NCBI GenBank assembly: GCA_021234155.1
Contig: JAJEKV010000098.1
Span: 2,568,592 to 2,632,591, forward strand
Direction of reading: 5' to 3'
Length of the DNA: 64,000 nucleotides
From: Isoetes taiwanensis
Taxonomy: Eukaryota > Streptophyta > Lycopodiopsida > Isoetales > Isoetaceae
Part shown: positions 41,079-64,000 of the stretch, piece by piece
Numbering within the stretch: the stretch's first letter is position 1
How the letters are laid out: each line of letters opens with the position of its first letter
Notes under the pieces: generated by a model
What the model was told of the DNA's origin: nothing
Databases searched by the model: none
The model's input: the letters and a program-made list of their open reading frames with translations, nothing else
Made by a program: the position numbers and the translations under genes

Positions 41079-42464
41079 TCAGTCTGTCTGACAACCAACA
41101 GAATTAAATACATATGGCGCCATGAATGTGCAATCCCCCTTATTCCGGAAGAATATTCCAAGCAAATCTGTAATTATGAGAGTTTGGTATCCTAGGTGGC
41201 ATGGAAAAAAAAAGGAGCCGGAAATATGACGTGGAATGGCTGATAGGAGGTCTGTTTTGAGACCCCAAATCCGCCCTAATGCTAGGGGCCCGACTTGTTG
41301 CCGATAGTGTGCCATCTTAATGTATGTCAGGGCATCTGCATCCCAGAGCTTGCGAAGGAAACTACCATCTAGGTATAGCTTTAGTGCATTGTGATCCTTC
41401 TTTGTCTGTACCTGCATGCATCCGTTTGCCTGTACATCCCAACATGAGAACCACTGAGCTTGCTTATCTTTCCAACAGGCTTTGAGGTGTTGGGGACCCA
41501 TTGTTACGACCAAAGCAAGGTTGGGCAAATGTGTATCACCCATAGCGACCACCTTCTTGAACTAAATAATATGGTGTTCCAATGCACCGCTGATGAGGAC
41601 CTGGTATGGAACTGTGGACTTTACCCCAAGGGCTCGTGCCAAGAAGGCTTTCTGCACCTGCTCGAGATCATTCCAGATGGTGAGGGATATCACCGGACCA
41701 CACACTTCTGCCTCGTACAGGAGAACCGGCTCGACCAAGGCCCTAAACAGGTGTGACTGGTGGCCCCAGACATATAACTCTGCCTTGTGGCTGTTGCTCT
41801 TCATGGCATATAGTGTGACGACCATCACATATAGTGCTTTCCAACCCGTTGTGACACGCATCCTGATGGCAGCATCCCAATAGGTGGTAGTAGAGAACTC
41901 GATCCCCAAGTACTTGTAGGTCGAAGCCACCTCTACATCTTATCCCTGGTAAGTGAATGAGGGAAGCCTTGGCTGATGAGATGACAAAACTAGCAACACC
42001 CTAGTTTTGGCCAAGTTAACTCGCATGCCAATGAATTGGAAAAAGTGTCAAGAGCATCCAGGTGATGTTGCATGTTCTCTGGAGTATAGGCCAGGAGGTC
42101 GACATCATCAGCATATATGAGTTGCTGGATTGTGTGATGCATGAGATGGGCGCCCACACCTTCGTGCTCAGAAAGCCAGTCTTCCAGCTGATCAATGTAT
42201 AGGCCAAAGAGTGTGGGGGACAGGGGGCAACCCTGATGTACTTCAATACTACTGACTACCGACTGTCCTGATGATGTGACACGTCCTAAGCATGCCTCGT
42301 ACAGCCTGTATATTGCGTTCTGCAAGTCAACGGGGGTCCCCATCTGCCGCAATCTATCCCATAACTTGTCCCGGGGCGCTGTGTCAAAAACTTTTGTGAA
42401 ATCCACGAAACAACAGTATAGGTTTTGCCGCCAATTCCTGCTATTCTCAATAGCGAACATTTGA
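41079..42464 (-). pseudogene. LINE family 2 reverse transcriptase, fragment
   Basis: Minus-strand RT in two frames. The first (about 42460-41990) has CCFVDFTKVFDTAPRDKLW, QGCPLSPTLFGLYIDQLEDWL and the catalytic LIYADDVDLLAY (YADD near 42099-42116). The second (41930-41562) carries the thumb, with TYKYLGIEF, and the third (41552-41079) the connection region ending in LGRIWGLKTDL. Frameshifts separate them and a stop lies near 41940. The endonuclease and C-terminal zinc region are absent. It belongs to the same family as 33.8-34.4 kb and 55.7-56.3 kb, and differs from the L1-type LINEs in this window. Confidence 0.85.
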
Positions 42465-42911
42465 TTTGCAATTATGTTTTGATGTTTGCAGAGATTGCAC
42501 AGATGAAATAAGAATACATTATTGAGCTAAATTAATATTGACTTTTATGAATGGTGGTTGAGTGCTTTTGGTAACTCACTAACCTTTGTATCGAGAGATG
42601 ATGTTAAATGTATAGATGATGTTAAATCTGCAATTCTAATTAAAGTCTGATGTATTGTAAACACATGAACCTTGAATAACAAAAAGTATTGACCAATTTA
42701 TTAAAAGAATCTAAATATTGTATTATGTAATTTCTAAATGAGGGTTAGGATGTTACTAAAATGCTTTACACCAATCCAGAATCACTTATTGCATTATCAA
42801 ATGTTGGACATTAACTGGGGTCCTTGGAATGAAAGAAATGTTCGCGGCGCCGAAGGCTCTTGCGATAAATTTCTTGTAGAAATAAAGTATATAGGAGAAG
42901 AACGTATTTTA
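42465..42911. other. AT-rich spacer, 3' of the receptor kinase
   Basis: Non-coding, about 70% A+T. It lies between the LINE remnant and the stop codon of the lectin kinase and probably includes that gene's 3' UTR. No polyadenylation signal can be singled out. Confidence 0.4.
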
Positions 42912-45428
42912 TCAACGTGGCAAGAGTATTGACCTGGACATGGAGGTGCTTGCTATCACTTGAGAAGATGAAGAGCTTCGTGCTCGAGACTCCAACAATG
43001 CCATAAATTCGTCATTAGCTGTAGGTTGTATTTTGGGAAAAAATTGGACTGTACTTACAAATTCAGGAATCTCGATACTGCCTTCCAGCATTTGGACCAC
43101 AGAAGACATGTGAGGCCGTAAATAAGGGTCATGGTTGAGGCAAAGAGCTGCAATTTTAATAACTCGTTTGGCTTGTTCCAAAATGAATGCTTCGTCAAGC
43201 CTACTATCAACAAGGCTTTTAACAGCATGATCATTTCTACTAAGCTTCCAATACTCTTCCCCATTTGGTTGAGGAGGTTTAACTCCAGCAAGGATCTCTA
43301 GCAATACGACTCCAAAACTATAAATATCACTCTCGACTCCTATAGCTTCACCCCACATCAATTCTGGGGCCAAATAGCCAGGGGTGCCACATATTGTAGT
43401 CATAAAAAAATGATCCTCGCCTCTATCTAGGAGTCTTGAAAGTCCAAAATCTGCTACTTTTGGATAAAAATTATCATCCAAAAGAATATTTTGAGGTTTC
43501 ACATCCAAATGTAGAACTTTCTCAAGGCACTCTTCATGCAAGTAGGCCATTCCTCGAGCTGCCCCTATAGCTATTTCCATTCTGGCCTCCCAGCTAAGAG
43601 GAGTGGTGTTTTCGCCGACGAGCCAGTGATCAAGGGATCTGTTTGCCATATACTCATATACCAGAGCTCTGGTTGTTTTGTTACTACAGAATCCAAGAAA
43701 TTGCACCAAATTGAAGTGGTGAACTCTGCCCAGTATTGTCAGCTCAGCATAGAAGTCCTGAGCTTGCTGCCTTGACCCATTCAAGATCTTCACTGCCACA
43801 TAATTCCCATTTGGTAGTTGCCCTTTATAAACTGTTCCAAATGCGCCATTTCCCAGCTTTTCACTAAAGCTACTAGTTATCTGTTCTACTTCCTTTAAGG
43901 AAAACCTTGTTAGAGTTGCCTCTGACAAGTAACTGGTTAAAATACCATCTTCTTCCTCCCCATCTTCTCTTTTGAGCTTGACAACAAAGCCAATAACACA
44001 AATCAGAATACAGAGTAGTACTCCTGCTCCTGCAGCAACTGAAGCAATAAGGACAATATTGGTTCCCTTCTTTTTGACGATCCCCTTTGTTATGGTGGTC
44101 TCATTAGTTTTGATCTTGCATAGCTTGAAGGAAGCTGAATAACTGTTATTTGAAGCTTTAAGGCTGTATAGATGATTGACTAAAAAGCAGTCACTGGTAT
44201 TATGATGATAAAATGCAGCAACGCAGTTAGGAGTATCGAGACATTTTTTATAGCACTCTGCTTCCTGGCCTGTTAGACTGGGGCTGGAAAATGAAGTCTC
44301 ATAATAATCAATTCCAGTCTGATTGATCATCTCACAACTGCCAGAATCGCTAGAATTGGTGTAACCTGATCCAAGTGCACAGCCTGCAGCTTCATTTGAA
44401 TCATCGATGTGTGTGAAGTAGGCTGAATTATTCAAGGGGCAAGTGCAGCTGCCATCAGTGGGAGAACAAACGCCAAACTGGCCACAAATGTTAGGCAAAT
44501 TACAGGAGTCATTACCTTGAAATTTTGAAGTCTGAGGGGATAATTTTTTGAGTGTGAGAACCCCATTGCCCTCAAGAGAGAGTACAGCCTCATACGAAAC
44601 CGTACTTGTGTAATTGCTTCCCCACCACAGCCACATCATATACTCCACTGTGGGTTGGTAACCGCAGAAGTTATAATTCTGCGTATAATACCCGGCATCA
44701 GATATGTTGCCTGTATCATATCCAAGCTGAAGAGTTGGTCCCCATCCATCACAGCAAAGAGCAACAAAAGTAGTGCCGCTGCTATCATATGTAAAGTTCC
44801 ATTCTCGATAGATATGCGTCTGGAAGTAGAGGGCAGCTCCAGTTTTCTCTGCTCTGAAACGGTAATCTCCGTTTGCAATCTCCATGCCATATTCCAAAAC
44901 TTGGCCACATACAAGCTTGTCTGTTGGGTTCTTAAAACTGCTCCACAGGGTCTTATTATTACTGTCCAGAAGAAGCAAGGCTCCGTATCGAGTAAGGCGC
45001 ATTCTGCTTACTCCAGGGGTGTTAGTAGACCAAACAGCAACTTGGTTCTCATCTTTAAGAACCAGCCCATCAGCTTGAAGTTGAAGAGTGGCATTGATGC
45101 CTACTGTCCTGCTAGCTGCTGCAGCCCATATAACATCATCTACATCCTGAAGATCGGCATTCCAGGCCACTATAGACGGAACCACATTTCTTTGATCTCC
45201 CAGAAACAGCAACCAGAACCACATCGTTTGCCGATCCTCCTTGATTGTGGTGGTGTTGAACATTGGAATTGCCAACCCTCCTGGGCTGTAGCTCCTCCCG
45301 TTGCTGAGTGGCTCTTGAGAATAGTTGGTTGTATTCCATCCCACTTCCGCAACATCCACATAAGTATAACTCAAAGCTGAAGAGATCTCGGAAAAGAAGA
45401 AGAAAACAAACAAAAGATTGCCCATCAC
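42912..45428 (-). CDS. G-type lectin S-receptor-like Ser/Thr protein kinase
   Basis: A single uninterrupted frame of 838 codons with no intron. Residues 1-20 form a signal peptide (a Phe-rich hydrophobic run). A bulb-type mannose-binding lectin domain covers about 80-190 (LQADGLVLKDENQVAVWSTN). Cys-rich EGF-like (about 305-335) and PAN/apple-like (about 360-437) segments follow. A transmembrane helix spans 457-484, followed by basic residues. The kinase spans about 520-790: G-loop GNGAFG 526-531, catalytic Lys in VAVK at 547, catalytic loop HLDVKPQN 640-647, DFG 660-662 and APE at 687-689. All invariant residues are present except the Arg of HRD, which is Leu, so this is a non-RD kinase, a class common among plant immune receptors. 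It probably sits in the plasma membrane and phosphorylates cytosolic partners on ligand binding. A second Met follows the first directly; both give the same signal peptide. Ligand unknown. Confidence 0.93.
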   Translation of the reverse strand: MMGNLLFVFFFFSEISSALSYTYVDVAEVGWNTTNYSQEPLSNGRSYSPGGLAIPMFNTTTIKEDRQTMWFWLLFLGDQRNVVPSIVAWNADLQDVDDVIWAAAASRTVGINATLQLQADGLVLKDENQVAVWSTNTPGVSRMRLTRYGALLLLDSNNKTLWSSFKNPTDKLVCGQVLEYGMEIANGDYRFRAEKTGAALYFQTHIYREWNFTYDSSGTTFVALCCDGWGPTLQLGYDTGNISDAGYYTQNYNFCGYQPTVEYMMWLWWGSNYTSTVSYEAVLSLEGNGVLTLKKLSPQTSKFQGNDSCNLPNICGQFGVCSPTDGSCTCPLNNSAYFTHIDDSNEAAGCALGSGYTNSSDSGSCEMINQTGIDYYETSFSSPSLTGQEAECYKKCLDTPNCVAAFYHHNTSDCFLVNHLYSLKASNNSYSASFKLCKIKTNETTITKGIVKKKGTNIVLIASVAAGAGVLLCILICVIGFVVKLKREDGEEEDGILTSYLSEATLTRFSLKEVEQITSSFSEKLGNGAFGTVYKGQLPNGNYVAVKILNGSRQQAQDFYAELTILGRVHHFNLVQFLGFCSNKTTRALVYEYMANRSLDHWLVGENTTPLSWEARMEIAIGAARGMAYLHEECLEKVLHLDVKPQNILLDDNFYPKVADFGLSRLLDRGEDHFFMTTICGTPGYLAPELMWGEAIGVESDIYSFGVVLLEILAGVKPPQPNGEEYWKLSRNDHAVKSLVDSRLDEAFILEQAKRVIKIAALCLNHDPYLRPHMSSVVQMLEGSIEIPEFVSTVQFFPKIQPTANDEFMALLESRARSSSSSQVIASTSMSRSILLPR

Positions 45429-47118
45429 GTAGCTTGAGCAACAGCGGCAACAGATTTCACCTTACTTCAGGCCTAAACAGATAGTCTAAAATATCCACTT
45501 TCTAGGTTCGCCAATCACGTCGGCCATATACGTACAAATCACATAGATAGGTGATAGACGTAGTCCAATTACATTCTATCCATTCGTTTCCAATCACATA
45601 GATGATAGACAATTACTTTCTAATGTTAATCACACCTTTCACCTATGACTCCACGTAGTTCAATCACACCAAGTCAAGATACCATAGAAAGTGAAGATGC
45701 CCTGGGCCAAGGTTGATAAGGGGCATCTTCACATTCTGTGATTGGTATGACAGCCACGTGGCAAGCAATAACTTCCCCCTTATCTTTACATGGGGCAAGC
45801 TAGGCCCACACCTAACGAGTATTTCAAAGTCTCTCTAACACTAGATCAAGCGTCCATTATCCCTAACGAAGTGTGTGTAGCGTTGGATAGCAGAGGCAGA
45901 CAAAGCAGAGGAATTCACTTATCATTGTAGTTGTCATAGTCAAGGGGAAGAACCTAAACATGTTTGTTGGATGATATGTCAATTATTGTGTGTTTTAAAC
46001 TTCCCGTCAATGACTTATCATTTATGGCAATCAAGAGGGAAAATCCAACCATGTATATTGGATGATATATCAATTATCGTGTGTTTTAGCACTAGAGTTG
46101 TCAGGCGATGGACCAAAAATGGTGCACTTGCACTGTTCACTTTAAAATTCATATAAAATCAATGGCTCAAAATTCAATAAACCCCTTCCTAGAAGTTGTT
46201 ATATGGCAGTCATATTTCATATGAAAAATATCTAAAAATCTATCTACCTCCATTCTTGGAAGTTATGCGTAGATGAATCCAAGGGGATCATGCCAAGACT
46301 GCCTTATATTTACATAAGGTAAAACTATCTTAATGAAATGATTGTTTCGATTCTTTTCAGTATTTTCTTATTTTTCTATGCGAGTTAGAGAGTACAACAC
46401 AAAAAATTGCACCTCATTCCAAGGTATGAGAAGGAAGATAGGGTTCATCAAAGATGACAGGGTCAAAATTGTTTTCTGTCTTCTGTGGACCAATAATCAT
46501 TTTAACATGAAATTAGAGATCTATATTACCAAGCAAGGCTTGCATCCATAAAAAAATAGCTCATCATAAAAGATGATCTACATACACTATTGTCATACTT
46601 CACCTACAATACTTCTGGCAGCAAACACAGTAATAAGTTTATGATAGCAAGAGAAAAGTAGGTTTGTTTGTGTTTTTTGCAATATATGACATCAAGAATC
46701 TCTATGCACATGTATAATATTATATGTGAGTTGAAAAAGAGTGTCATCTTGATTAAATGATTCAAATTTTGAAAAGTCTAAGTATTGACCATTAATGATT
46801 CATGGATATTTATATTTAAATCTTGCAACTACTATGTCACTTTCACATCAAACTTGAGATCTATGTTGCCAATGAAGCCTTACATTCATAAAAAATATAG
46901 CATTTCTTAAAAGATAAACTATATGTACAATTAGCATAAACTCCAATATCGTGTAGTAACAAACACAACCAAATGTAGAGAATACATGATTAACTACTAC
47001 CTATAGGTTGATAAAATTACAATCTACATAGATATACGTGTAGTGCATATCGTGGATCTTTTATTGCTCTTTTAAAGATGATATACGTATTGCGGCTGAA
47101 GATTTGCGACAATATTTA
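45429..47118. other. Upstream region of the receptor kinase and gene-free DNA
   Basis: The first 300 bases hold the probable promoter. They contain a repeated phrase (CCAATCACATAGAT, at about 45535 and 45591) and several TGATAGAC copies; no clear TATA box can be fixed. At about 46510-46600 and 46850-46935 a diverged 80 bp direct repeat is seen (GAGATCTATRTTRCCAA...). No gene. Confidence 0.4.
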
Positions 47119-51905: not shown

Positions 51906-53688
51906 GGATCCTTGCAGGCTCTGTCATCTCTAGGAGTGTTGGTGTATCAAGAATCTCATGAGGATCCGGGGTGTGCTTCTTCAGAAGGCTCACGTGGAAA
52001 ACTTTGTGGACCTTAAGATGAATATGCAAATTAAACTTATAGGCTTGAGAACCTATACATTCAATGATCTGAAATGGTCCGGCCCATTGTGGTGCCAATT
52101 TCTTGCAATTCCCAATTTTGAGCTTGGCCTGCTTAACCTTGATCTTCAACCCCACAGATTCACCAACCTGGAACTCACGCGGGGTACGATGTCTATCTGC
52201 TAAACTCTTTTGGCGACTATACAGGCGTGCTTCCTCTACCGAAACTTGCATATCGGTAAGCAATTGTTGTGAGATTGCCACTTTGGAAACTGGGTTATGC
52301 CACGTATCTAGAGTAAGACCCATGGAGTCCAAAAACCTCCTTGGAGAATAAAAGTGTCGTATACAAAGCAGTGTCGATGGTGCGGCATGGCAAGAAATAC
52401 GCCATCTTAGAAAGCTTGTCAACTACTACCATTAAGGCGTCAAATCCTCGAAGTGTTCGTGGGATGCCTACAATAAAGTCCATGGTAATGACTTCCCATT
52501 TTGCATTGGGGACATCAAGAGGTTCCAGTGTGCCTGGCGTTCTTAGCCGCTCTGCTTTTGTCTGCTGGCAAAGTTGGCATTGCTTAATGTAGCGGGCAAT
52601 ATGCTTCTTCATACCAGGCCAAAAGTAATTGGATCTTATCTTGAGATATGTTTTCATAAATCCAGCATGACCAGCAATAGGGCTGTTATGTGTGTCATGG
52701 AGAATAAGCCTCCTAACTCCTGATGACTCGGGTACACACAACTTATCGAGGTAATATAAAAGATTACCGTCCTTCTTATAATGCTTAAATGTGTCCCTCT
52801 CCTTATCAGTCGTGGCCTCTTTAGAAAGGCTGCCCCACACTTCACTGAACTTGGGATCCGTTGGAAGATATTGCTCAATAGTCTTCCCAAATTCACTTGC
52901 AAGAGTGGAAATAGCGTTATAATGGGTACATGTGGTCAACGGATGCCGAGATAAGACATCTGCAACAACATTGTGTTCTTCGAGTTTATACAAAACCTCA
53001 AAGTCATATTCTTCCAAAAATTCTATCCATCGGCGTTGTCGGAGATTGAGATTAGCCTGAGTAAAGATTGGTGATCTGTGTCTAGTTGGAACCGCCATCC
53101 AAGAAGATAATGTCTCCAGATGCGCAAGGCACGCACAACTGCAAGCAATTCCTGGTCATGAGTAGGATATCTTTGTTTCGCATCATTCATTTTCTTAGAG
53201 TCATAGGCTATGACGCATCCCTCTTGCACCAAAACAGCTCCAGTTGCTATCTTACTGGCATCAGTCGCAACGACCTTATCCTTCTGAAGATCAGATAAGG
53301 TAAGGACTAGTGCCGACGTTATAGCATCTTTCAGCTGTTGGAAGCCTGTTTGAACCTTGCTTTTCCAATGTGATGCCCAATCTTTGACCTTCTCATGCTT
53401 TGTGAGGTCGGTAAGGGGTGCTGCAATCTTAGCAAAGTCCTTAACGAACTTCCGATAATATCCTGTCAATCCCAGGAAACTTCTGACTTCCGAGACATTG
53501 GTAGGAGCTAGCCACTCTTTGACTGCCTCAATCTTTGCTGGGTCTATAGCAATACCCTCAGCAGAAGCAATATGACCCAAGTACTCGACCCTGGTGGTCG
53601 CAAATTTACATTTGAAAAACTTAGCGAACAGCTGGTGGTGCCGCAACTTCTGAAGTGCCAGCCGAAGATGGCATTCATGATCCTCCAG
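51906..53688 (-). pseudogene. Ty3/Gypsy RT-RNase H-integrase fragment
   Basis: Reading down the minus strand: the end of RT (VEYLGHIASAEGIAIDPAKI, about 53580), the RNase H domain (VVATDASKIATGAVLVQEG, about 53250), the H2C2 zinc finger of integrase (CQLCQQTKAERLR, about 52560), the start of the integrase core (WEVITMDFIVGIPRT, first catalytic Asp, about 52480) and the integrase C-terminus (GPFQIIECIGSQAYKFNL, about 52060). The part of the core with the second Asp and the Glu is deleted at about 52300, and the RT palm is cut off at 53688. The element cannot transpose. Confidence 0.9.
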
Positions 53689-53697
53689 GAGTAAGGT

Positions 53698-54093
53698 AGA
53701 GTAAGGTAATTATTCGTAACCATCTTGTAACCTACATCTTGTTGTTAGTATCACATCCTAGGAAATGCATGAAATAGGAAAAAAAAAAAATGTTAAGTGT
53801 ATTATCTCAACTGCAATGATGCCTCTCATCTGGAATTCTCTGCTAAGGAGATTCGGCTAAGGGCCCTAGACATGGAAAACTTGATTCATAGTCCTAGATC
53901 ATAAAGTGTTTTCTCTGCTCCTAACGTGCCGGATTATGCAAATAGCACCTGGGCATTAGCTAGAACAAAAAAGAAAATTAGGTTAACAAAAAATGTTTAA
54001 CAGAGCAATGACAATCATTTTGCCTTATCTCAAAAAAAGACTTCCGTCGCCTGCTCTGGATCATGGTTGTTACCCTTTCCTCATTAATAAAAC
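53698..54093. repeat. 396 bp direct repeat B, copy 1
   Basis: It is identical to 58432-58826 except for one base in a poly(A) run (12 versus 11 A). It starts AGAGTAAGGTAATTATTCG and ends CCTCATTAATAAAAC. The ends are not TG...CA and no target duplication is visible, so it is not a typical LTR. It directly abuts the broken end of the Gypsy element. Confidence 0.9.
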
Positions 54094-55634: not shown

Positions 55635-57170
55635 TCAACAGTGGACCTAAAATTAGGGTCGGTGTGAATGTTATGCAATTGCCTATGGCTTTGACAGGAA
55701 TGCTTACCCATGGGCATGGCCCTTCAACTCAATCCCAGGCTCACGAGAGGCCCACACCAGTACTTGTACACCCAGTTGCCCATGAAGAAGCGCAGACTTA
55801 TAGCTTCCATTCGCACGGGTGCACATCACCTTCGTATTGAGACAGGATGTTGGGCTCGGGAAGCACGAGAGCAAAGGCTTTGCCAGTGTTGCCACCAGGG
55901 CGCCATTGAGGATGAATGTCATGCCCTCCAGATCTGCCTAGTGTTTGCCCATATCAGAGAGCGGTATGTTCGATTACTAGTGCCTGGCCAACCGTTGCAT
56001 GAGTTATTGAATACGACGTCAGTGGGTTTGTTGGGGTCATACCTCCAGGAGGTTATGGATGCACGGACTCAGTTGTGTCTTCCGGGACAGCGGTGAACTG
56101 TCCTATACAATTGTACAGCATGCCAGCAGACTTATTACTGCTAAGATTTTTCCCTCGAAAACCCTTCGGGGCGGGGGTTTTTTAATCCTGTCAGTAATAC
56201 GTTTGTTGCTCTCTTTTTGTTTGGGTCCCATAGGCCAGTCGGTTCTCCGTGGACACTGAAAATCTATTCTATTCTATTCTATTCTTATGGCCATTTTTCC
56301 ACATGGAATTGGTCATTTGACCCAAACTTTACAATAGGTTTTATTGCGAAATGTTTGTGGAGTTTAGAGAGTTTCGAAGACGGAGATAAGGGTGATTTGA
56401 CTCCAACTTTCACCTCAGCAATACAACCCCTTCATAAAGCATTGTTGACAAGAACAGATGGTAAGCAATTGATAAAGGAAGAATATGGTGGTTTTAAGCC
56501 TCTTCCAAAAGTTCTACTTTTACAGGTGGATAACTGTGTCTCTGAGAATAAAAATTGATATGTCTTGGCATACTTGGCACTATTAGTGGCAAGAGGACAT
56601 TTCAAACAAATATTGATGGCATTTCTTATGGTTGGGCATACGCATGAAGATATTGATGCTTTCTTTAGCAGAGTTGGAGAAAGTTTAAGAACGCGTCATG
56701 CTCACACTTTGCCTCAGTTATTTGAAGTGTTTGAAACATGTGTATCTGCAAAAAATGTTCCATATCTCGTACAAGAAGTTCCTGATTTTAAGAAATTTGT
56801 GGATGGTTATATAGAAGATGGGTGCAATAAGTTGGTAGGGCATACCAGGCCATTACATTTTCGGTTGTATTTAGATGATAAAGGAGCTCCCAAAATGCAG
56901 TATAAGGTGCATCCTAAGCAGGCAATATGGGAACTAGAAGCCAATGTTGAACTTTTTAAAAAAGATGGTGATATACAAATGTTGCCTCAAGGTGAACCTG
57001 AGCCAGTGCCCCTTGCTGAACATATGAGAGGAGAAAAAAATATTATATCCGGCATTTCAAAATATATAGATTTTTGGAAAATAGGTTTGGAAGGTCGTTT
57101 TAGGCAAAGTTCCAAGTATCATGAAGTAGTGAAACCAACTATTGCATTGGATTTATGTACTGTTGAGTGA
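55635..57170 (+). pseudogene. DUF7869-like gene, split by a LINE and a stop codon
   Basis: Two blocks belong together. Block 1 (about 55635-55721) reads RVGVNVMQLPMALTG and ends THGHG. Block 2 (56287-57170) continues in the same frame, with QVDNCVSENKN, ARGHFKQILMAFLMVGHTHE and DIDAFFSRVGESL, then a C-terminal half ending LPQGEPEPVPL and a stop at 57168-57170. This is the DUF7869 signature (DNC...NK, VGHTHEDID) seen in large families of plants and invertebrates; the function is unknown, although the spaced acidic residues resemble those of an RNase-H-type nuclease or transposase. Between the blocks sits a LINE 3' end flanked by ATGGCC. An in-frame TGA at 56556-56558 directly follows NKN, so even with the LINE removed the frame is closed. 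The 5' end is unknown. Confidence 0.75.
55722..56286 (+). mobile_element. LINE family 2, 5'-truncated insertion
   Basis: About 565 bp with the C-terminal part of the LINE protein, containing a Cys/His cluster (CQCCHQGAIEDECHAL), then the 3' UTR and four ATTCT units as the tail (56262-56285). It lies in the DUF7869-like frame. The flanking ATGGCC (55716-55721 and 56287-56292) is a target duplication; excising one copy plus the element keeps the host frame. The 3' UTR contains the hairpin AAAACCC...GGGTTTT (56158-56182). Confidence 0.85.
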
Positions 57171-59554: not shown

Positions 59555-59967
59555 TAACAAGATTGATTTTCAGGCTTTATATCTCTGTAGAAAACATAGC
59601 CGCTATGGCAGTGTTGCAAAGCATCAATGAGCTGCTAAAAATATTTCCTTGCCTCATCTTCTGGAAGCATTGTCTTTTCCACTATTTTGTTAAATAGCTC
59701 ACCTCCGGTGATATACTCCATAACTAAGTAGATTTTGGTCGGGACCTCATGGAGATGGACTACGTTAGGATGCTTGTGCTTAAGCACCTTGTCTTTGTCT
59801 AGAACTTTCACTGGCACATGCTCCCCTGTTTCTATGCTTCCGGCGAATCTAACCTTTGTAAATGTGCCTGTTCCTAACAAAGGGCTTAGCTCATACTTTC
59901 TTACTTGCGTATGCACATACATCTCAAAGTAAAAACTTCCCTTGAAATGCTCAAACCCACAGATCAT
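59555..59967 (-). pseudogene. CIPK (SnRK3) kinase N-terminal pseudogene
   Basis: The minus-strand frame begins RKYELSPLLGTGTFTKVRFA, then TGEHVPVKVLDKDKVLKHK, HPNVVHLHEV, YLVMEYITGGELFNKI and EDEARKYF, which is the N-lobe of a CBL-interacting protein kinase. A block of about 20 residues between LKHK and HPNVV, with the alpha-C helix, is deleted. A TAG at about 59635 breaks the frame just before QLIDALQHCHS, and the catalytic loop that follows reads YRDIKPEN instead of HRDLKPEN. The rest of the C-lobe and the NAF domain are missing. It lacks introns over the region seen. It is non-functional. Confidence 0.85.
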
Positions 59968-60893: not shown

Positions 60894-61169
60894 ACATAAC
60901 GTCCGAATAGTCCTTTGGCCTAGGGGGGCGGAGCTTCTGCCAGCCAGGGGAGATTTTAGGGCGACTTCTGCTCTAATACGATGGCCGACAGCAAGGAGTA
61001 GTAAGTACATTGTTTCAAAAATTCATGCAATCCCGTCTTAGAATTGAGATCTACATGTAGAATTAATCATATTCTTTTTCAATTTCCATTGATCAGCGAC
61101 CCAGGTAGATCTGGAAAGCGGAGGTATGTATTTAGCCCGAAACTGAATGGTTTGACCATATCTTTACAG

Positions 61170-61251
61170 GTAAATCTGGTGGGAGGATATTATGATGCTG
61201 GAGACATTGTTAAGCTTGGCCTTCCCATGGCTTTCACCATAACAATGCTGA
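61170..61251 (+). pseudogene. GH9 endoglucanase exon fragment
   Basis: After a good splice acceptor (TCTTTACAG, ends 61169) the frame reads [19 protein letters not shown] then MAFTITML, the conserved N-terminal block of plant GH9 (KORRIGAN/CEL-type) cellulases. In the family a catalytic-region Asp pair lies in DAGD, which is intact. Downstream and upstream the frame is unrelated and no other GH9 exons are present. It is an orphan exon or relic. Confidence 0.75.
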
Positions 61252-61460
61252 AATTACATGACCTCAAGTATGATTTAGTGAGCAGAGTACTTGAACTTGG
61301 GAAAAAATCTAAGGTTTGTTTATTTCGGCAGGTTTCTTGGGCAACAATCGCTGCTCCACCGCCTTGCAACCATTTTGTGCCAGATTTCAGGGTAGATCTG
61401 ACGCCTCTAGAGATTCTTAAGCAGATTGAGCAGAGCCAAGCCATGTACACACTTCTGTAA

Positions 61461-61792: not shown

Positions 61793-64000
61793 ATGGAATC
61801 AAGCCCTGAGTGGGACTTTGATGTCCTTGGTTTATGCTGCAGGATCAGAGAAGCAGTGGACCAGGAAGGTAAAATAAATGAGCAACAATGTCTTTTGGTA
61901 AAATTACTAGCAGATTGCATCCAGCGATACATGGAAATATGGATTACATTATGTGGTGAAGAAGTATGGTGGAATTTGAGGAAGGAGCTGTTTAGCGTTC
62001 TGGAGAACGCCCTGCAACTCATAATTCTATCTGGCCAAAAGAATTCTTCTGCTGACATAGCTCTTGCTGTTTTGGGTTTTAAAGGTGAGTTAAATGAGAT
62101 TATTGATGATGCAAGGGTATATGCCCAGATGATTAATCGCTTCATTTTGAATTTTCCGAATTCATTGCATAATGTTGAAGAACAACGAAATTATGTTGAA
62201 AACCTTAAAATCCAGGTAGTGTCGGACTGCAACAGTTTGCAATCTTCCATTGAAACTGCATATCAACAGGACAAGAAGACTCTAATACGAAATTGGAATA
62301 ATAGCCCAGTGTCTAGATCTGTATGGTCCAGCTTGGTGCCTATGTTGATAAGTGCAGAGCCTAAAATCAGCGACACTGATTTGTCTAGACAGGAAAAGGT
62401 GGGACAAGGTAGTTTTGGAACTGTTGAGACCGCACAGTGGCATAAACTGCCTGTAGCTGTGAAAAACTTTACTGATGTTCGTTATTTCCATGATGAATTA
62501 GCAGTTTATAAGAACCTGCTGCATGCTGATTCTCCCCATATTGTACGCATGTTAGGTTACTCTACAAGTAATTTACTTGTATTAGAGCTTATGAGTAAGG
62601 ATTTGAAAGAACATATTACAGGGCTAAAATCTCCACTTCCTCTAATTCAGTCACTTCACTTGATTCTCCAAATAGCCAAAGCATTGAGGCATTTACATAA
62701 CATGGATGTTGTTCACCGGGACCTTAAACCCGCTAATGTATTGCTCAAAACTAGAAAGGATGGAAGTCTACTTATCAAACTGACTGATTTTGGCATCTCT
62801 AAACACTCTTTTGGATTTGCAACATCCCATACATGCTTCCAGGGCACCATGATGTACATGGCACCAGAAATGCTGGCAGGATCAACAAAGTATTCAAGAA
62901 AAGTTGATGTTTACAGTTTTGGTTTGATTAGTCTTGAGATTCTTGCAGGGAAGGTACGTCAGAATAGAGAAGAAGAATTAACTCTACCCAAAGACATTCC
63001 TAAGATGCTAATAAGTCTGATAAACTCTTGCATGGAATTTAATGATGTCAAACGTCCCGGCTTTGACGAAATTTGTGATAGCTTGTGGCTTGTGAAAGAA
63101 GAAGTCTTGGCCAAAGTCAAAATAAGTGGACTACGAGGAATAAGGATTGAAAACTTTCCAAGTGCTTCTGCCATTCATCCTAATCAAGATAATGCAAAAT
63201 CACGAAGGCACATGTTTCTTCCGATCATATCTCCGTGTTCTACTTTGACAGGTAAGAGAGCTATTTATGCTTTGTCACACAACGCTATCTGTAAGGGACG
63301 GTACTCAGTAACAGATTTGCCTGTAGACATTTTGGTTGATATTATGTTTGTTGGTTCCGTGCGTCTTATAGCCTCTGGACAATTAAAAATAGAGGATCGT
63401 TGGAATACTCTATTGAATCCATATGAAAGCATTGCACATGAAAATCGCCATCCTGAAGATCTAGGTATATTTGGGCAATTCAAGAAGTTGCTAAAGGATC
63501 AAGGAAAAAAGTTCAATCTCTATCTTTATATAGGAGGCTGGGACAATTCAGAGTGCTTCTCTACTGCCTTTTCTACTGCAACAACTCGCACTATATTCGT
63601 CAATTCTGTAGTGGGACTCTTGAAAAGCTACCCAATCTTCAATGGCCTGGTTATTGACTGGAGCTATATCAGTGACAACGGGAAGAATTATGGTAAGGCT
63701 GGCAATGTTACCAGTGAAAAAGATGTTGATAACTTGGTTCTTACTCTTGAGGTACTTAGAAAAGAACTACCTGTTGGTAGTTTTATGATTGCGTTAACTT
63801 GCACATCATCTGCTGCGCAGGAATGGCCAATAGAAAAGGCAATTCATTTGCTAGATCAGATCCATGTGAACCTTCCTGTCATTAGCAGTAAAATTACATC
63901 TCATAGATCGGCCTTGTATGCTAGTTCTTCCTTTGAACAGCATAATACAGATGAAAGTGTGAAGATGTACATCTCCCATGGGGTACCGTCTTCCAAGATT
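61793..64000 (+). CDS. MLKL-like kinase fused to a GH18 pseudo-chitinase (partial, runs off the edge)
   Basis: 736 codons are open from the ATG at 61793 to the window edge. Residues 1 to about 190 are alpha-helical and Cys/Leu/Glu-rich, with INEQQCLLVKLLADCIQRY near 30-50; this resembles the N-terminal helical bundle of plant MLKL-type proteins (inferred). Residues about 195-460 form a complete kinase: G-loop GQGSFGTV 204-211, catalytic Lys224, HRDLKPAN 308-315 (an RD kinase), DFG 332-334, then MYMAPEM. Residues from 487 follow the GH18 fold: strand AIYAL, GIFGQFKKLLK, IGGW (580-583), then NGLVIDWSY (617-625) where active chitinases have DGxDxDWEY, so only one of four acids, D622, is left. 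VKMYISHGVPSSKI, the last residues, matches the block near the end of the barrel. No signal peptide or membrane helix is seen, so it is probably cytosolic. Predicted role: a kinase with a non-catalytic chitin- or glycan-binding or scaffold domain. An AG|GTAAG at the GH18 start (63251) could be an alternative donor, but the frame stays open. Confidence 0.85.
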   Translation, partial: MESSPEWDFDVLGLCCRIREAVDQEGKINEQQCLLVKLLADCIQRYMEIWITLCGEEVWWNLRKELFSVLENALQLIILSGQKNSSADIALAVLGFKGELNEIIDDARVYAQMINRFILNFPNSLHNVEEQRNYVENLKIQVVSDCNSLQSSIETAYQQDKKTLIRNWNNSPVSRSVWSSLVPMLISAEPKISDTDLSRQEKVGQGSFGTVETAQWHKLPVAVKNFTDVRYFHDELAVYKNLLHADSPHIVRMLGYSTSNLLVLELMSKDLKEHITGLKSPLPLIQSLHLILQIAKALRHLHNMDVVHRDLKPANVLLKTRKDGSLLIKLTDFGISKHSFGFATSHTCFQGTMMYMAPEMLAGSTKYSRKVDVYSFGLISLEILAGKVRQNREEELTLPKDIPKMLISLINSCMEFNDVKRPGFDEICDSLWLVKEEVLAKVKISGLRGIRIENFPSASAIHPNQDNAKSRRHMFLPIISPCSTLTGKRAIYALSHNAICKGRYSVTDLPVDILVDIMFVGSVRLIASGQLKIEDRWNTLLNPYESIAHENRHPEDLGIFGQFKKLLKDQGKKFNLYLYIGGWDNSECFSTAFSTATTRTIFVNSVVGLLKSYPIFNGLVIDWSYISDNGKNYGKAGNVTSEKDVDNLVLTLEVLRKELPVGSFMIALTCTSSAAQEWPIEKAIHLLDQIHVNLPVISSKITSHRSALYASSSFEQHNTDESVKMYISHGVPSSKI

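What the first reader, a model, noticed from the sequence alone, without database searches (positions are those of the whole stretch)
61793..64000. Cytosolic-looking kinase with an N-terminal MLKL-like bundle and a C-terminal dead GH18 chitinase domain
The sequence shows one open frame with a helical N-terminus, a complete RD kinase and a GH18 fold whose DxxDxDxE signature is N..V.D.S. Known plant chitinase-kinase proteins (tobacco CHRK1) place the chitinase-like domain outside the cell, before a membrane helix and the kinase. Here the order is reversed and no membrane helix or signal peptide is seen. If the N-terminal bundle is truly HeLo/MLKL-like, this would be a kinase-gated membrane-acting protein with a glycan-sensor tail: a candidate undescribed immune or cell-death system.
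Basis: partly seen in the sequence, partly recalled or inferred. Interest (0 to 1): 0.92.

Follow-up and report, generated by a model that had tools for sequence, protein, structure and literature searches.

The report
Kinase with hypervariable dead chitinase tail
A lycophyte (quillwort) genome carries a family of proteins that join a likely cell-death domain, an active-looking kinase and a chitinase fold whose catalytic residue is lost and whose former sugar-binding pocket is evolving fast, which looks like a pocket turned into a recognition surface for an unknown, probably pathogen, target.

Summary
The 847-codon frame (61793-64336; the last 336 bases lie beyond the window) encodes an N-terminal helical domain, a kinase with its key motifs, and a GH18 barrel lacking the catalytic Glu. 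It is not a one-off: its own genome (Isoetes taiwanensis by assembly size) holds at least 15 intact genes of this order, besides broken copies and relatives with no GH18 or with a second kinase. The N-terminus is a remote MLKL_N/HeLo relative: two kinases of the same genome bridge it to Pfam's MLKL_N, though Pfam's models do not hit it directly. The fused GH18s form one clade beside two stand-alone GH18 genes that keep the Glu. Catalytic Glu is absent in 15 of 15, replaced by nine different residues. Active-site columns that are conserved in ten bacterial GH18s are variable here, and codon models find sites at omega about 4 (LRT 43 on gap-free codons; 40 null simulations reach 5), several of them former substrate residues. 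Best reading: an intracellular kinase-fusion immune receptor with the dead chitinase pocket as diversified recognition surface. Chitin sensing is not supported. Function is untested.

The parts
61793..64000 (+). Coding frame, 736 of 847 codons (stop ends at window-equivalent 64336, outside the window); no intron needed
61805..62293 (+). N-terminal domain, predicted helical at low confidence, remote MLKL_N/HeLo relative (residues 5-167)
   Evidence: hhalign of family profile A1 to the N-terminus of L065: probability 98.9, E 1.2e-17, 162 columns; L065 and L066 pass Pfam's cut-off for MLKL_N. Weak direct similarity to Arabidopsis chains 6lba/6ka4. Direct Pfam hit absent
62387..63091 (+). Protein kinase domain (residues 199-433), RD type
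   Evidence: PF00069 1.6e-41; motifs
62462..62464 (+). Conserved Lys of VAVK (K224)
62720..62722 (+). Catalytic Asp of HRDLKPAN (D310)
62786..62788 (+). Asp of DFG (D332)
63251..64000 (+). GH18 barrel, from about residue 487; last part lies beyond the window
   Evidence: PF00704 6.4e-24, solved chitinases, full domain in L001
63662..63664 (+). Ser in place of the catalytic Glu of DxxDxDxE (S624)

Best explanation
It is an intracellular kinase-fusion protein of the MLKL-NTD plus kinase kind, with a catalytically dead GH18 barrel as a C-terminal integrated recognition domain. Shown by sequence: three-part architecture in one frame, 15 intact copies, homology of the N-terminus to MLKL_N through intermediates, active-looking kinase, one clade of fused GH18 beside stand-alone GH18 genes, loss of the catalytic Glu, and a signal of diversifying selection that includes former active-site positions. 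Inferred: the barrel mouth binds varied partners, most likely pathogen effectors or other foreign proteins; binding releases or activates the kinase; the kinase frees the HeLo-type bundle, which acts at a membrane or feeds cell-death signalling. Sensor, switch and executor would then sit in one chain.
For: Architecture and copy number. Kinase motifs in 15 intact genes: Lys 15, HRD-type Asp 15, DFG 14, APE 15. N-terminus to MLKL_N (weakly 38, 39). Fused GH18 one clade, SH-aLRT 95, next to L047/L048. Catalytic column SRRLTNNHMMTFVMM in 15 intact genes. Of 18 active-site or nearby columns named, 16 could be scored in both sets: entropy in 17 fused domains minus entropy in ten bacterial GH18s averages +0.98 against -0.16 for all shared columns, reached by 1 of 100000 random sets. 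M2a over M1a LRT 94 on 361 codons, 43 on 225 codons away from gaps, null simulations at most 5.0 in 40; two clades separately 21 and 36, sharing M218, G268, Y272, R274 of L047 numbering at posterior above 0.7. The C-terminal place holds a second kinase in L031 and L062, the pattern described for kinase fusion proteins (passages of PMC10951266).
Against: No expression, ligand or phenotype data. The kinase domain of the same 15 genes also gives a weaker signal (LRT 16.4), and the N-terminus 5.0, so diversification is not confined to the GH18. Residues 1-130 of the barrel give none on 58 gap-free codons with their own tree (LRT 0.09). Taken alone, the 16 scorable columns are not significantly more variable than random columns of the family (11879 of 100000 sets); the 13 of 100000 rests on a smaller set that I picked after seeing the residues. 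Pairwise omega of the groove is only about 1 (1.04 against 0.63; 25 of 382 shifted masks do as well). Copies seem to have exchanged GH18 pieces (low GH18 dS against kinase dS in L010/L011 and L007/L019), which can inflate site tests. L008, one of 15 proteins, has a membrane-like stretch between kinase and GH18, and L035 lacks DFG.
Confidence: 0.55

Rival explanations
1. Glycan sensor: the dead barrel still binds chitin or another glycan in the cytosol, as chi-lectins do, and gates the kinase.
For: GH18 fold kept; the Trp after strand 3 is kept in 16 of 21 fused rows; CHRK1 is a precedent for a dead chitinase on a kinase (passages of PMC10573068).
Against: Many substrate-holding positions differ from copy to copy, some at sites called as positively selected; the sequence offers no route for chitin to the cytosol.
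Confidence: 0.15
2. Self or partner recognition outside defence: the diversified pocket serves self/non-self or copy-specific pairing, as HeLo proteins do in fungal allorecognition, or symbiont control.
For: Diversifying selection and copy-number growth do not by themselves name a pathogen.
Against: Architecture resembles plant resistance proteins of the kinase-fusion kind.
Confidence: 0.15
3. Passenger: the GH18 is a relic under relaxed selection on a kinase that works without it.
For: Several relatives show no GH18 in the fetched flanks or only half of it; GH18 omega of recent pairs ranges from 0.30 to 1.22 and is near 1 in several.
Against: 15 intact frames of 832-942 residues, about half of the GH18 codons at omega about 0.2 and 7% at about 4.
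Confidence: 0.12
4. Assembly or gene-model artefact that joins two genes.
For: The window is cut inside the gene.
Against: Same order in one frame at many places on different contigs.
Confidence: 0.01

Closest known systems
Pm13 of Aegilops longissima (MLKL_NTD plus serine/threonine kinase; powdery mildew resistance)
   Same: N-terminal MLKL-type domain followed by a kinase with the key catalytic residues (passages of PMC10951266)
   Different: No third domain is mentioned in the passages I saw; its kinase is of the RLK/Pelle DLSV group there
Arabidopsis MLKLs (PDB 6lba, 6ka4 by recall; DUF1221)
   Same: Same two-domain order and an IN..QC motif near the start; profile score above 100 of 100 shuffles
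   Different: Pseudokinase there, RD kinase here; no GH18. A DUF1221 search of this genome found nothing, but also nothing in its control genomes, so it decides nothing
Wheat kinase fusion proteins, e.g. Lr9/Pm57 (tandem kinase plus vWA)
   Same: Kinase with an extra domain; extra domains of such proteins are hypothesised to perceive effectors (passages)
   Different: Other domains; not a GH18
Tobacco CHRK1
   Same: Class V chitinase-like domain lacking the Glu, on a kinase (passages of PMC10573068)
   Different: Here the kinase comes first and no helix is seen
Plant NLRs with integrated domains
   Same: Works like: a foreign domain used as a recognition surface beside a HeLo-like executor (general knowledge)
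   Different: No NB-ARC or LRR found by Pfam; a kinase sits in the middle

Membership tests
Plant MLKL / MLKL_NTD-kinase | N-terminal MLKL_N or DUF1221 domain by direct model match | tested here: not met
   Not among Pfam matches of the window protein or of 23 family N-termini at E up to 1; the genome search with MLKL_N lists no place that one search lists
Plant MLKL / MLKL_NTD-kinase | N-terminal MLKL_N/HeLo homology by profile and intermediates | tested here: met
   A1 to L065 E 1.2e-17; L065/L066 over the MLKL_N cut-off, 28.4 and 28.8 bits against 27
Plant MLKL / MLKL_NTD-kinase | Kinase domain directly after it | tested here: met
Plant MLKL / MLKL_NTD-kinase | Four-helix bundle structure | tested here: inconclusive
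   Single-sequence AlphaFold2 model all-helical but mean pLDDT 44.9
Plant MLKL / MLKL_NTD-kinase | Causes cell death, oligomerises | not testable with these tools
   bench work
Kinase fusion proteins | Kinase fused in frame to an unrelated domain that varies between relatives | tested here: met
   GH18, second kinase or neither after the kinase
Kinase fusion proteins | Confers resistance | not testable with these tools
   bench work
GH18 chitinase (enzyme) | GH18 fold by profile | tested here: met
   PF00704 6.4e-24
GH18 chitinase (enzyme) | Catalytic Glu of DxxDxDxE | tested here: not met
   0 of 15 intact genes; kept in one partial copy, L024
CHRK1-type receptor kinase | Signal peptide, extracellular chitinase domain, membrane helix, then kinase | tested here: not met
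   Order kinase then GH18; no hydrophobic helix in the window protein

The most novel reading that the evidence does not exclude
Lycophytes have an NLR-free class of intracellular immune receptor in which the mouth of a dead chitinase barrel is a hypervariable recognition surface, read out by a kinase and a HeLo-type executor in the same chain, and expanded and recombined like resistance genes.
Probability: 0.4. Interest if true: 0.95.

Novelty: new variant of a known kind. Interest (0 to 1): 0.86.

Why it matters
Kinase-fusion resistance proteins are known from cereals; how their extra domains work, and how old the design is, is open. A many-copy family in a lycophyte, with an enzyme barrel whose catalytic mouth has lost its conservation and carries positively selected sites, would give an early-diverging case and a ready set of natural variants for finding what integrated domains bind. 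It would also show a TIM barrel being used as a diversified recognition scaffold. In ten full-text searches none of the papers listed looked, by title and start of abstract, like a description of this architecture; several lists were capped (for example 10 of 803), and most subscription journals and all preprints are not in that library.

Tried and rejected
Direct domain calls for the N-terminus: Pfam on the window segment gave nothing better than 0.15, and 23 family members gave 20 scattered hits of one member each, best 0.0023 for PhoU, with MCAfunc, RPW8 and DUF7792 at 0.11-0.12. PDB by sequence gave nothing clear, with 6lba at E 2.1. DUF1221 found nothing, nor in its control genomes. AlphaFold2 on the N-terminus without an alignment was too poor to use, so no fold search was made. 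Bacterial origin of the GH18: the scan of genome contigs, which rests on two short peptide patterns, found 10 relatives at 28-31% identity; the lycophyte clade sits on a long branch, so horizontal transfer is neither shown nor excluded. Pairwise dN/dS alone was not decisive. Simple decay of the GH18 was rejected as the main reading because constraint and positive selection coexist.

Limits of my own tests. The strand-end mask was written after I had seen the most variable columns, so its p values are not blind. The site models were run with my own code, not PAML or HyPhy, with branch lengths fixed from M0 up to a scale; it was checked only by 40 null simulations. The naming of groove residues comes from general GH18 knowledge. 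That 6lba and 6ka4 are AtMLKL2 and AtMLKL3 is recalled; the PDB labels say Protein kinase family protein and F22L4.1 protein.

Full report
What was checked. The window frame starts at an ATG at 61793 and runs off the end. The window lies in a genome of 1,658,258,908 bases in 1110 contigs. The published Isoetes taiwanensis assembly has 1658.30 Mb in 204 scaffolds plus 909 contigs (passages of PMC8566536), so I take the species as I. taiwanensis, by inference. In that genome the frame ends 336 bases beyond the window and codes for 847 residues. Pfam finds a kinase (1.6e-41) and GH18 (2.4e-23) and nothing useful in the first 190 residues.

A gene family. A search of the own genome with the 736 residues gave 77 matches; only 61 of 1791 candidates were scored, so this is a lower bound. 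Reading the loci as they stand, 14 carry N-terminus, kinase and full GH18 in one open frame (L001, 002, 003, 005, 007, 008, 010, 011, 014, 016, 019, 021, 022, 035), and L063 is a fifteenth. Others are broken or partial (for example L004, L012, L018, L024, L026) or show no GH18 in the fetched flanks (for example L006, L009, L015, L033), keep half of it or a remnant (L028, L030, L034, L061, L064), or carry a second kinase (L031, L062) or two whole units (L039). On the tree of N-terminus and kinase (39 rows; L023, L024, L039 and L040 were left out for missing or short kinase parts) the GH18 label needs 8 changes. On the GH18 tree (27 rows; I left out the fused L004, L012, L025, L026 and used 7 of the 10 bacterial loci) the 17 fused domains form one clade, SH-aLRT 95, beside the stand-alone L047 and L048. 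The simplest history is one fusion followed by repeated loss or replacement.

The N-terminus. Direct evidence is weak: no Pfam model is shared by more than one of 23 members, the profile reaches the Arabidopsis chain 6lba only at E 2.1, and profile comparison with 6lba and 6ka4 gives P 0.0014, score 28.1 against at most 26.4 in 100 shuffles, with hhalign probability only 18%. The bridge came from a search of the genome with Pfam's MLKL_N, which lists 20 places at E up to 10, none of them a place listed. Two of them, L065 and L066, are kinases whose N-terminus passes the MLKL_N cut-off (28.4 and 28.8 bits against 27) and also that of DUF7792. The window family's profile matches the N-terminus of L065 with probability 98.9 and E 1.2e-17 over 162 columns, score 112 against at most 21.8 in 100 shuffles; single-sequence BLAST of the pair gives 6e-07. 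So the domain is an MLKL_N relative by transitive homology. The structure itself is untested: the single-sequence model has mean pLDDT 44.9.

The kinase. The window gene has VAVK, HRDLKPAN, DFG and APE. Among the 15 intact genes the Lys is found in 15, the HRD-type Asp in 15, DFG in 14 (not L035) and APE in 15 (in L005 and L008 it reads APEI and APEV). Arabidopsis MLKLs have a pseudokinase and Pm13 does not (passages of PMC10951266); this protein is like Pm13 in that.

The GH18. The best solved match is 5gzu, labelled Chitinase (Paenibacillus ChiW by recall), at 1.6e-21. Among the closest GH18s in the genome are stand-alone frames such as L047 (426 residues, with a CBM5/12 at its end) and L048, both with DWE. 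L047 is 59% identical to L048 and 42-56% to five fused domains, while the plant class V type L049 is 26% to L047. In 15 intact fused genes the column of the catalytic Glu reads S R R L T N N H M M T F V M M; the partial L024 still has Glu. Positions 1 and 4 of DxxDxDxE are N and V or I already in L047 and L048, so their activity is itself unproven.

Pocket diversification. In one search I listed 18 catalytic or nearby columns. In ten bacterial GH18s their mean entropy is 0.62 against 1.47 for all columns (0 of 100000 random sets as low); in 17 fused domains the 16 that can be scored average 1.63 against 1.37, which is not significant alone (11879 of 100000); the change between the two sets, +0.98 against -0.16 for all shared columns, is reached by 1 of 100000 sets. 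So the columns lost their conservation as a group, some much more than others: in 15 intact genes the strand-7 Tyr ranks 1st of 361 columns, strand-7 Arg 4th, strand-6 Met 6th, catalytic Glu 10th, strand-8 Trp 49th, while the GGW and YD positions stay largely conserved. A smaller set, picked after seeing the residues, gave 13 of 100000. With three aligner settings, 22 of the 40 most variable columns fall in a strand-end mask of 67-68 of 361-362 columns; 3 of 382 shifted masks reach its mean entropy; in the bacterial set the mask is less variable than the rest, 1.32 against 1.51. The mask was written after seeing the top list.

Selection. My own codon-model code gave M2a over M1a LRT 94.5 with 7% of codons at omega 4.0, and M8 over M8a 80.6. 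Using only 225 codons free of gaps and over two codons from one, LRT is 43.3 against a maximum of 5.0 in 40 null simulations. Of 17 sites above 0.9 in M8, 10 lie in the mask. Controls on the same 15 genes: kinase 16.4, N-terminus 5.0. Two clades alone give 21.5 and 35.8 and share M218, G268, Y272 and R274 (L047 numbering, posterior above 0.7). With a separate tree for each part, residues 1-130 give 0.09, 131-250 give 36.6 and 251-400 give 28.6. Pairwise counts point the same way but more weakly: groove dN 0.208 against 0.080, omega 1.04 against 0.63, with 25 of 382 shifted masks as extreme. In L010/L011 and L007/L019 the GH18 has far lower dS than the kinase (0.048 against 0.296; 0.124 against 0.429), which suggests exchange of GH18 domains between copies; this is a caveat for site models and also what a receptor family might do.

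Reading. The barrel is kept, its chemistry is gone, and part of its mouth is the fastest-changing part. The most economical account is a recognition surface. With a kinase and an MLKL-type domain in front of it, and with other domains in the same place in relatives, the protein works like a kinase-fusion resistance protein, closest to Pm13 with an added integrated domain. Whether it is one needs function. CHRK1 shares the idea of a dead chitinase on a kinase (passages of PMC10573068) but carries it outside the cell. Passages only were also seen of PMC12512272, PMC6362431 and PMC11153570; the 2020 paper on plant MLKLs was not held. Confidence: architecture about 0.97, N-terminus as MLKL_N relative about 0.85, pocket diversification about 0.8, immune function about 0.55.

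Noticed in passing
L065, L066 (own genome C1049:11741500-11744200 and C226:107900-110600): MLKL_N plus kinase proteins with a weak, below-cut-off Ig-like (AIR9 A9) tail match: perhaps a second kind of MLKL-kinase fusion in the same genome.
   Followed up: partly
L062, L031, L039: Family members with a second kinase in place of the GH18; in L062 it looks like a receptor-kinase type (by eye). L039 holds two N-terminus plus kinase units.
   Followed up: partly
L047 200-1477: Stand-alone GH18 with CBM5/12, first Met right after an in-frame stop and no signal peptide seen by eye; unlike plant class V. Possible horizontal transfer, not tested.
   Followed up: partly
L008 residues 526-544: Strongly hydrophobic stretch (Kyte-Doolittle 3.0) between kinase and GH18, alone among 15 proteins: perhaps a membrane-bound variant.
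   Followed up: no
L060 from base 2: About 160 residues of unknown kind in frame before the N-terminal domain (the fetched piece starts inside the frame); reminds me of the end of an Hsp70-like ATPase, no Pfam match at 0.01.
   Followed up: no
L006 residues 455-549: Weak RsgA-like GTPase match (E 0.0015, below cut-off) in the tail of a GH18-less member.
   Followed up: no
window 42915-45461 (-): 849-residue open frame with B-lectin, weak PAN and kinase domains: an S-domain type receptor kinase.
   Followed up: partly
window 61005-61457 (+): Fragment of a GH9 endoglucanase just upstream of the gene.
   Followed up: no
window 59566-59967 (-): Kinase fragment that reads like a CIPK start (by eye), seemingly a relic.
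   Followed up: no
window 41993-42526 and 52298-53709 (-), 56559-57167 (+): Retroelement pieces (reverse transcriptase, RNase H, integrase zinc finger) and a DUF7869 frame.
   Followed up: no
L010/L011 and L007/L019: GH18 dS much lower than kinase and N-terminal dS of the same pair: likely exchange of GH18 domains between paralogues.
   Followed up: partly
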